Source: Kineosporiaceae bacterium SCSIO 59966 (GTDB lineage Bacteria; Actinomycetota; Actinomycetes; Actinomycetales; SCSIO-59966). From it: a DNA stretch of 64,000 nucleotides. Positions 26,631-36,906 of this stretch are shown here, piece by piece; positions within the stretch are counted from its first letter, which is position 1; every line of letters begins with the position of its first letter. The stretch lies in assembly GCA_020881835.1 (NCBI GenBank), contig CP052876.1:124001-188000 (forward strand). Direction: 5' to 3'. The notes under the pieces were generated by a model, which was given only the letters and a program-made list of their open reading frames with translations, made no database searches and had not been told where the DNA came from. Both the position numbers and the translations under genes were made by a program.

Positions 26631-26911
26631 TGTTGGTGATCATGCAATCCCGCCACCCTGCTGCCCCTGCCAGCCGCCCGCCCCTGTTGGTGATCATGCA
26701 ATCCCGCCACCCTGCTGCCCCTGCCGGCCGCCCGCCCCTGTTGGTGATCATGCAATCCCGCCACCCTGCTGCCCCCACAGAATGCTGGCTCGGGCACAAG
26801 TTCTGCGGCGTGTCGCGCCCACAATCCAGCACTTTGCGGGCGGGCAGCAGGAGCGGGGTGGCGGGATTGCATGATCACGGAGAGACCAGGGTGGCGGGAT
26901 TGCATGATCAC
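26631..26911. repeat. Array of the GGTGATCATGC repeat, three direct and two inverted
   Basis: The 24-bp core GGTGATCATGCAATCCCGCC-ACCC occurs three times on the plus strand with a 54-bp period (26635-26658, 26689-26712, 26743-26766). It occurs twice inverted (26856-26878 and 26889-26911). The segments between the direct copies differ by one base, so this is a tandem duplication. The inverted copies can pair with the direct ones in long stems. This array fills most of the 352-nt gap between the epimerase and iron-redox genes. A sixth copy lies at 36208. Confidence 0.9.
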
Positions 26912-26936: not shown

Positions 26937-28013
26937 TCAGGCGGCGGTGGTGGTGGTGCCGGCGGTGGTGGTGGTGGCGGCGGTGGCGGCGATGCGCACA
27001 GGACGGCGCAGCGCGCTGCGACCGGCCTGCCACGCGGCCAGGGTCGCGGCCCCGGCGAGCTCGTCGAGCCCGAGGCAGACCGCGGCCCCGAACAGGACGT
27101 CGCCGGTGAGTGCCGGCTCCGCCGCGACGAGCGAGCCGCACAGGTCGTGCGCGGCCAGCTGCTCGTGCACGGCGTCCGCCTCGACGTGCTCGGTGAAGAA
27201 CTCCGCCGCCTCCGGCGGGAGCCCGAGCCGCTCCATCCCGGCCGCGTAGCGCTTGCACGGCAGTGACGACGTCATCTCGTACGCGGCCAGGTGACCGAGG
27301 TTGGCGCCGCGCCAACGACGGTGCAGCCCGAACAGGTGCATGGCGTTGACCGTTGCGAGCGTGCGGGCCGGGACGAGGTCGACGTAGGCCCCGTAGGCGT
27401 CGTCCAGCCCGACGGCCCGCATCGTCGCGGCGAACAGCTCGGAGTGCATCCTCCCGGGCCGGCCCTCGCCGTACTCGTCGAACTGGATCTCCACGAGTGC
27501 GGACTTCGCGGCTCCGTGCAGCCGGGGGATGGACCAGGTGTGCGGGTCGGCCTCCTTGAGCTGGTACGCCGAGCGGAGCACGCACATCTCGCGAACCTGC
27601 CCGACGGTCGCCTCGCGGGCGACGAATCCGGCCACCGACGGTCCGCCGCCGGAGGAGGTCATCGCGAACAGCTCGGCGGGCACGTCCTCGGGCTCGACGG
27701 TCCGGTCACGGACTTGCCCGAACCGCTGCAGCAGCTCCCGCTCGACGGCGCTCTCCAGGACCCCGCGAGCGGCGATCAGCGACGGCGACCACTCCCACGC
27801 GTCGTCGACCCCGGCCAGCCCGCGGTAGGACAGCTCGTACAGCAGGGTCAGCCCGAGCTGGACGTCGTCGTCGGCGAGCACGCCGTCCCTCGCCGTGGCG
27901 CGGCCGCCGGCGGCGTCGGCCGCCTCGGACAGCGCGGCGGCCTCGTGAGGGCGCTCACCGAGGATGTCGACCAGCGCGGCCGTGAACGGTCCGCGGGCAG
28001 AGGGGATCCGCAT
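26937..28013 (-). CDS. Iron-containing redox enzyme, heme-oxygenase-like fold
   Basis: A 358-aa helical protein of the iron-containing redox enzyme family (heme-oxygenase-like diiron proteins). EIQFDEYGEG (about residues 178-187) and FFTEHVEADAVHEQ (about 272-285) supply the Glu/Asp/His residues expected to bind a diiron centre. Related proteins carry out oxidative N-C or C-C cleavage on small molecules. The reaction here is unknown. The last 20 or so residues are an Ala/Thr tract encoded by triplet repeats and probably lie outside the fold. ATG 28013 is preferred. The 16 residues upstream in frame lack support. Confidence 0.75.
   Translation of the reverse strand: MRIPSARGPFTAALVDILGERPHEAAALSEAADAAGGRATARDGVLADDDVQLGLTLLYELSYRGLAGVDDAWEWSPSLIAARGVLESAVERELLQRFGQVRDRTVEPEDVPAELFAMTSSGGGPSVAGFVAREATVGQVREMCVLRSAYQLKEADPHTWSIPRLHGAAKSALVEIQFDEYGEGRPGRMHSELFAATMRAVGLDDAYGAYVDLVPARTLATVNAMHLFGLHRRWRGANLGHLAAYEMTSSLPCKRYAAGMERLGLPPEAAEFFTEHVEADAVHEQLAAHDLCGSLVAAEPALTGDVLFGAAVCLGLDELAGAATLAAWQAGRSALRRPVRIAATAATTTTAGTTTTAA
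26940..26996. repeat. GGT/GGC trinucleotide repeat tract
   Basis: An imperfect run of GGT and GGC triplets inside the 3' end of the iron-redox gene, read on the minus strand as Thr and Ala codons. Such runs change length by slippage. Because the unit is three bases the frame would be kept. Confidence 0.8.
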
Positions 28014-33265: not shown

Positions 33266-36190
<2,925 letters not shown>

Positions 36191-36207: not shown

Positions 36208-36231
36208 GGTGATCATGCAATCCCGCCACCC
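36208..36231 (+). repeat. Single copy of the GGTGATCATGC dispersed repeat
   Basis: An exact copy of the 24-bp core found in the array at 26631-26911, here alone. It lies 16 nt from the 3' end of the LytR_C gene and upstream of furA. Presence at two distant loci shows this is a dispersed element, not only a local duplication. Confidence 0.9.
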
Positions 36232-36246: not shown

Positions 36247-36906
36247 TCAGCTCGTCTGGCCGGCCTCCAGCGTCGGGACGACGCACCCGGCGCGGGACTC
36301 GACCGGGGTGGGCCGGGTCAGCTCGGCGGCCTCCTCCGGCGGGCGAAGGCCGGCGAACCCGGCACCCAGGGACAGCTCGACCGCCGTCCCCTCCCGTCCG
36401 TCGTCCACGAGCTCGGCGCCCTCGATCTGGGCGGCGACGGTCCGGGCGTGCAGCAGCCCTTCGGGGCCGTGCCGGACGAGCGCGACCTGCTCGACCTGGC
36501 TGGTGTCGTTGCCGATCGACCCGACGGTGAACCCTCGGGCGGTGAGGGCCTCCGCCGTCGCGGCAGCCAGTCCGGGCCGCCGGGTGCCGTTGAGGACGAC
36601 GAGGACGACGTCAGCGACCGGTGCGGCGGTCACCTCGGGGGTCGGGCAGGCAGCCGCGGACGTCGCGGTGGCCACCGGACTGCCCGGCTCGTCCTGCCCG
36701 CCCCACGGGGGCCAGGCCCACCAGCTCTGGTAGACACCGGCGGCGGTGACACCGGCCCCGAGGACGACGAGGACCAGGGCCGCGAAGAACGAGGTCTGCG
36801 CCCGCCGGACCCTGGCCGCTCGGCGCTCGGCGGCGCGGCGTGCCTGGTAGCGGCGCTCGTCCTCCTCGGTCCACGTGCCGTCGGGGCCCCACCCAGGGTC
36901 AGTCAT
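36247..36906 (-). CDS. LytR C-terminal domain membrane protein
   Basis: A 219-aa protein. A charged cytoplasmic N-terminus (about residues 1-37) is followed by one membrane helix (SFFAALVLVVLGAGVTAAGVY), a Pro/Ala linker and an extracellular LytR_C domain (about 98-185, VVLVVLNGTRRPGLAAATAEAL). Such proteins are cell-envelope factors in actinobacteria. Their biochemical role is not settled. It overlaps the preceding small gene by 8 nt, so the two form an operon. Confidence 0.82.
   Translation of the reverse strand: MTDPGWGPDGTWTEEDERRYQARRAAERRAARVRRAQTSFFAALVLVVLGAGVTAAGVYQSWWAWPPWGGQDEPGSPVATATSAAACPTPEVTAAPVADVVLVVLNGTRRPGLAAATAEALTARGFTVGSIGNDTSQVEQVALVRHGPEGLLHARTVAAQIEGAELVDDGREGTAVELSLGAGFAGLRPPEEAAELTRPTPVESRAGCVVPTLEAGQTS

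What the first reader, a model, noticed from the sequence alone, without database searches (positions are those of the whole stretch)
26631..26911. Dispersed repeat in direct and inverted arrays
The core GGTGATCATGCAATCCCGCC-ACCC appears three times with a 54-bp period and twice inverted, and once more at 36208. It lies only between genes. Inverted copies can pair to 23-bp stems with direct ones. It may be a REP-like or mobile-derived element, a transcription barrier or a protein-binding repeat.
Basis: seen in the sequence. Interest (0 to 1): 0.6.

Follow-up and report, generated by a model that had tools for sequence, protein, structure and literature searches.

The report
Dispersed palindromic repeat targeted by IS110
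The repeat is one of about 120 sites in this actinobacterial genome where copies of a near-invariant 23-letter sequence, usually pointing at a central hairpin, sit between genes; it resembles the REP elements of other bacteria but lacks their known transposase, and a jumping gene of the RNA-guided IS110 family has landed at the same base of this sequence in all seven of its copies.

Summary
About 120 sites were read. Typically 1-4 direct cores precede, and 1-5 inverted cores follow, a 59-nt imperfect palindrome H joined to one core by a linker of about 20 nt. 447 of 454 parts are intergenic, enriched between convergent genes and rare between divergent ones, with no bias relative to transcription in tandem gaps (25:25). 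The core stays about 97% identical while adjacent linkers fall to about 50%.

It works like a REP/BIME element, but no RAYT (Y1) transposase was found in this genome or five related ones, so it is not filed as a REP. Other families of the order carry genome-specific versions.

The linked transposase is an IS110-family element. All seven copies sit at the same GT at the start of a core, and its 3' noncoding region carries, in one predicted internal loop, 7-nt and 8-nt matches to the two target halves, as a bridge-RNA target loop should (chance about 1 in 200,000). This IS uses the repeat as landing site; what copied the repeat itself stays unknown. Terminator or protein-binding roles are not excluded.

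The parts
26636..26911 (.). Composite repeat site: three direct cores, palindrome H, two inverted cores, in the 352-nt gap between two minus-strand genes
26636..26658 (+). core copy 1, GTGATCATGCAATCCCGCCACCC
   Evidence: exact 23-nt borders from 346 aligned copies
26690..26712 (+). core copy 2 (54-nt unit)
26744..26766 (+). core copy 3 (54-nt unit)
26778..26836 (-). 59-nt imperfect palindrome H (stem CAGAATGCTG/CAGCATTCTG-type arms); on the minus strand it follows the inverted core 26856-26878 in the standard core-linker-H order
   Evidence: genome 150778, orientation H+
26837..26855 (-). linker between H and the first inverted core
26856..26878 (-). inverted core copy 1
26889..26911 (-). inverted core copy 2
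36209..36231 (+). single core copy without H, between the Fur-family gene (35614-36075, -) and the LytR_C gene (36247-36906, -)

Best explanation
The sites belong to one dispersed, mobile-derived family of extragenic palindromic repeats that works like the REP/BIME elements of proteobacteria. The recognised sequence is a 23-nt core. In its fullest form the element reads: outer type-b core, one or two cores, a linker of about 20 nt, a 59-nt palindrome H, and a degenerate tail of about 100 nt; two such units often face each other. Shown: dispersal to about 120 sites, intergenic placement, near-invariance of the core while linker and H-loop drift, genome-specific versions in related families, and exclusive use of the core as landing site by a resident IS110-family IS (7/7 copies at the same GT). 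Inferred: this IS finds the core through a bridge RNA in its 3' noncoding region (left guide CCUUCGU, right guide AUGAUCAC), and convergent gaps are enriched because insertions there do least harm. Not shown: which enzyme copied the repeat itself. No RAYT was found in this genome.
For: Copy number and dispersal; fixed directed unit core-linker-H with cores pointing at H; 32-33 copies share a degenerate tail beyond H. 447 of 454 features intergenic although 84% of the sequence is coding. Occupied gaps 44 convergent, 59 tandem, 11 divergent against 38, 187, 48 in empty gaps (convergent vs divergent P = 2.5e-5). Random orientation in tandem gaps, 25:25. Pairwise identity: core 0.97-0.99, H stem 0.94-0.96, linker 0.48-0.53, flanks 0.36-0.48; in array neighbours with homologous spacers core mismatch 0.6% vs spacer 13%. 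IS110: DEDD_Tnp_IS110 plus Transposase_20 domains; seven copies, all with left junction ...YTC|GT and right junction GT|GATCATGCA[A/G]TCCCGCC; TC before GT in only 33% of cores but in 7/7 targets (P = 4e-4); guides of 7 and 8 nt on the two sides of one predicted internal loop, 1 in 200,000 randomised regions. This is the LTG/RTG layout described for bridge RNAs (PMC11208160), and IS110-family elements with 4/4 to 7/7 copies in REPs are known (PMC1525189).
Against: No transposase that could copy the repeat was found; no empty site or strain comparison shows recent movement, because no member of the same genus or family turned up among the relatives searched. The extreme conservation of the core, also inside arrays whose spacers are no longer alike, is more than neutral debris should show, so a host function or recognition by a factor is possible. 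The stem of H shows no covariation beyond column composition.
Confidence: 0.7

Rival explanations
1. Host-selected bidirectional transcription terminator or insulator between convergent genes: C-rich, G-poor core arrays act as Rho-loading sites and H as a pause hairpin, for transcripts entering from either side.
For: Enrichment between convergent genes and short distance to gene 3' ends, median 30 nt; the sequence before cores is 60% C and 12% G on the core strand; H substitutions are mostly G-T wobble on the core-to-H strand, 98.3% paired against 95.4% on the other; in G032 the hairpins sit right behind stop codons.
Against: In tandem gene pairs cores and H point with and against transcription equally (core 78:80, H 22:26, gaps 25:25). 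No intrinsic-terminator match in the window site. REP-like elements avoiding promoters would give the same convergent enrichment.
Confidence: 0.15
2. Binding-site array for a sequence-specific DNA-binding protein (nucleoid organiser, roadblock, or DNA-uptake or molecular-drive motif) that maintains each core.
For: Exact 23-nt borders; 97-100% identity at nearly every core position in 346 copies; core mismatch 0.6% vs spacer 13% in array neighbours; most frequent spacing 37-38 bp; GTGATCWTGCA kept across several families while the rest of the element differs.
Against: No candidate protein found; redundant tandem copies are hard to maintain by host selection alone; the 37-bp spacing may largely be inherited with a shared ancestral unit, as the same spacer recurs at unlinked sites.
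Confidence: 0.1
3. MITE of a classical DDE transposon, the core being its terminal inverted repeat.
For: Inverted cores flank an internal sequence; full units of about 130 bp occur in tandem at 646.6 and 650.6 kb.
Against: No fixed internal sequence and no evident target-site duplication around the cores. The one ISL3 transposon touching an element has different ends and is a passenger: its 8-bp duplication is CAGAATGC inside H, and its two other copies lie elsewhere. No recurrent transposase in the genes called within the fetched stretches other than the IS110, whose ends are not the core.
Confidence: 0.05

Closest known systems
REP/BIME (PU) and REPIN elements with RAYT transposases
   Same: Short palindromic or paired inverted repeats, hundreds of copies, extragenic, composite arrays, genome-specific versions, landing sites for IS110-family ISs
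   Different: No Y1/RAYT gene found in this genome or in the five other carriers tested; no GTAG tag; the conserved part is a 23-nt core that is hardly palindromic itself and flanks a separate 59-nt palindrome
CGTC-tagged REPs without a dedicated transposase (PMC3733652)
   Same: REP-like family lacking its own transposase
   Different: No CGTC tag at the end; 'actinobact' and 'Streptomyces' do not occur in the main text of that paper
ISPpu9/ISPpu10, ISPa11, ISRm19, IS621: IS110-family elements that insert into REPs
   Same: DEDD/IS110 transposase, all copies at one position of a dispersed extragenic repeat, guide-like matches to both target halves in a noncoding end
   Different: Here the target is the actinobacterial core; core dinucleotide GT; guides lie in the 3' noncoding end (265 nt, IS1111-like place) but in the order described for IS110, and no long subterminal inverted repeat was seen
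Genome-specific GTGATCWTGCA hairpins in other Actinomycetales (G032, G072, G015)
   Same: Shared GTGATCWTGCAnTYnCG arm, inverted pairs, often close behind stop codons
   Different: Simple hairpins (17-nt arms, 6-nt loop in G032; mostly 14-15 nt in G072); no 59-nt H seen in the loci read

Membership tests
REP/REPIN (RAYT-associated) | High-copy, extragenic, palindromic or paired inverted repeats | tested here: met
   about 406 cores; 447/454 features intergenic; inverted pairs
REP/REPIN (RAYT-associated) | RAYT (Y1 transposase) in the genome or in close relatives | tested here: not met
   PF01797: 0 hits in G000 and in five other genomes with the core; rings in 5 of 14 control genomes
REP/REPIN (RAYT-associated) | GTAG (or CGTC) tag at one end of the palindrome | tested here: not met
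   No such conserved tetranucleotide beside H or the core in the alignments of 108 H and 346 cores
MITE | Fixed element with terminal inverted repeats and target-site duplication | tested here: not met
   Core-H unit fixed, but flanks and spacers variable; no duplication evident on inspection
MITE | Autonomous partner with the same ends | tested here: inconclusive
   ISL3 and IS110 ends differ from the core, but only genes in the fetched stretches were screened
IS110-family insertion sequence (the linked element) | DEDD_Tnp_IS110 plus Transposase_20 domains | tested here: met
IS110-family insertion sequence (the linked element) | Insertion at a defined core dinucleotide of a specific target | tested here: met
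   7/7 copies at GT of the core
IS110-family insertion sequence (the linked element) | Bridge RNA / seekRNA with guides to both target halves | tested here: inconclusive
   Guide-like 7- and 8-nt matches in one predicted internal loop, chance 1 in 200,000; RNA expression and function not testable here
Intrinsic transcription terminator | GC-rich hairpin followed by a T run | tested here: not met
   0 matches at the window site

The most novel reading that the evidence does not exclude
A trans-acting factor that is not a RAYT and is shared by several actinobacterial families recognises GTGATCWTGCA and either copies these hairpins or keeps each core under selection, giving a REP-like system with a different engine, on which a bridge-RNA IS110 element depends as its only landing site.
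Probability: 0.25. Interest if true: 0.75.

Novelty: new variant of a known kind. Interest (0 to 1): 0.5.

Why it matters
REP elements are best known from proteobacteria together with RAYT transposases. Here a REP-like system with hundreds of copies, a near-invariant core and genome-specific versions occurs in Actinomycetales without that enzyme, which makes the question of what copies or maintains such repeats directly testable. The seven IS110 insertions at one base, with guide-like matches to both target halves, give a natural candidate bridge-RNA target pair with a GT core that could be tested in laboratory strains.

Tried and rejected
Rfam search of the window: nothing. RAYT/Y1 transposase: absent. 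ISL3-family IS as mobiliser: one of three copies sits in H with an 8-bp duplication, the other two do not, and its ends differ from the core, so it is a passenger. Sense 3'-UTR or terminator role: no orientation bias in tandem gaps. Covariation in H: not above column-shuffled controls, only a strand-asymmetric wobble pattern. Phage or plasmid origin: no match in viral contigs or plasmids. IS110 hits in G015 and G032: no core-like sequence in their fetched flanks. Literature: no paper found describing this repeat.

Full report
Observation. All lie between genes. The stated refuter fails: the genome (one contig, 3,095,448 bp, window = 124001-188000) has 168 + 168 exact 19-mers, 203 + 218 with at most two mismatches and 0 in the reversed control, and 199 + 207 copies of the 23-mer with at most one mismatch.

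Anatomy. I read about 480 kb around 121 sites. The core is exactly 23 nt, GTGATCATGCA[A/G]TCCCGCCACCC; information drops from 1.6 to 0.3 bits at the next base. Core and H form a directed unit: core start to H start 43-45 nt, mirrored in the opposite arm. Extra cores lie on the outer side, most often 37-38 nt apart; a related type-b core (GTGATCAGTCGAAAATCCC) lies about 25 nt further out; 32-33 copies share a degenerate tail beyond H. Full units of about 130 bp are tandemly repeated at 646.6 and 650.6 kb.

Placement. Gene calls are my own codon-usage calls, so approximate, and the 'empty' gaps come from the same stretches. 447 of 454 features are intergenic. Occupied gaps: 44 convergent, 59 tandem, 11 divergent; empty gaps: 38, 187, 48. 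The element lies near gene 3' ends (median 30 nt). In tandem gaps it points with and against transcription equally often (25:25), which argues against a sense-strand terminator and for an element tolerated where it harms least.

Conservation. In units with a core and H, pairwise identity is 0.97-0.99 for the core, 0.94-0.96 for the H stem, about 0.5 for the linker and the second half of the H interior, and about 0.4 for flanks. In array neighbours with still recognisable spacers, cores differ at 0.6% and spacers at 13% of positions. So the core is either selected or constantly renewed. H folds better than shuffles as RNA and DNA; its stem variants are mostly G-T wobbles on the core-to-H strand, hinting at single-strand folding, but there is no covariation above shuffled controls.

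Relatives. Of 149 genomes of the order, the pattern GTGATCWTGCANTYNCG has many copies in four, in genome-specific versions: this genome, G032 (129 copies, 17-nt arms and a 6-nt loop), G015 (35) and G072 (13); three others have one to three. Among other orders of the class only single matches appear. None of the six genomes tested has a Y1/RAYT transposase. No match in viral contigs or plasmids.

The linked transposase. Among genes called in the fetched stretches, a family of three was an IS110-family transposase abutting a core. A family search found seven copies, and all seven have the same junctions...YTC|GT at the left end and GT|GATCATGCA[A/G]TCCCGCC at the right. Rejoining the flanks gives the native core context. 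Of ordinary cores only 33% have TC before GT, against 7/7 targets (P = 4e-4). The 265-nt 3' noncoding end contains CCTTCGT, identical to the target's left half with the GT, and 30 nt later ATGATCAC, the reverse complement of its right half with the GT, on the two sides of one predicted internal loop; 1 of 200,000 randomised regions did as well. This is the LTG/RTG layout described for bridge RNAs (PMC11208160). The 3' place is IS1111-like, but the guide order is the one described for IS110 (PMC11187229). IS110-family elements with all copies in REPs are known (PMC1525189). An ISL3-family IS inserted once in H is a passenger.

Verdict. A REP-like dispersed element, to my knowledge new in sequence and architecture, without the REP transposase, serving as landing site of an IS110-family IS. 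How the repeat itself spreads, and whether the core binds a factor, remain open.

Noticed in passing
G000:C1:1342357-1343780 (L175): ISL3-family IS (three copies in the genome) inserted inside an H palindrome with the 8-bp duplication CAGAATGC.
   Followed up: yes
G000:C1:1395401, 2064.7 kb, 2528.2 kb, 2586.2 kb, 2588.1 kb, 2622.8 kb, 2793.6 kb (L189, L191-L196): All seven IS110-family copies lie on the + strand, although inverted cores would offer targets on the other strand (two-sided P about 0.016).
   Followed up: no
G000:C1:646599-647040 and 650641-651045 (L069, L070): Whole core-H units repeated in tandem with periods of 131 and 129 bp, unlike the usual core-only arrays.
   Followed up: partly
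G032 loci L155-L164, L152: Perfect 17-nt-arm hairpins with a 6-nt loop starting with A and ending with T, often directly behind stop codons; one copy (L152) is broken within the second arm next to what reads like a transposase gene.
   Followed up: partly
window 36118-36165: Short tandem repeat (CCCGGAACT(C/T)TG units) just upstream of the Fur-family gene 35614-36075.
   Followed up: no
window 26940-26996: GGT-rich low-complexity repeat at the 3' end of the Haem_oxygenas_2 gene, giving an Ala/Thr-rich protein tail.
   Followed up: no
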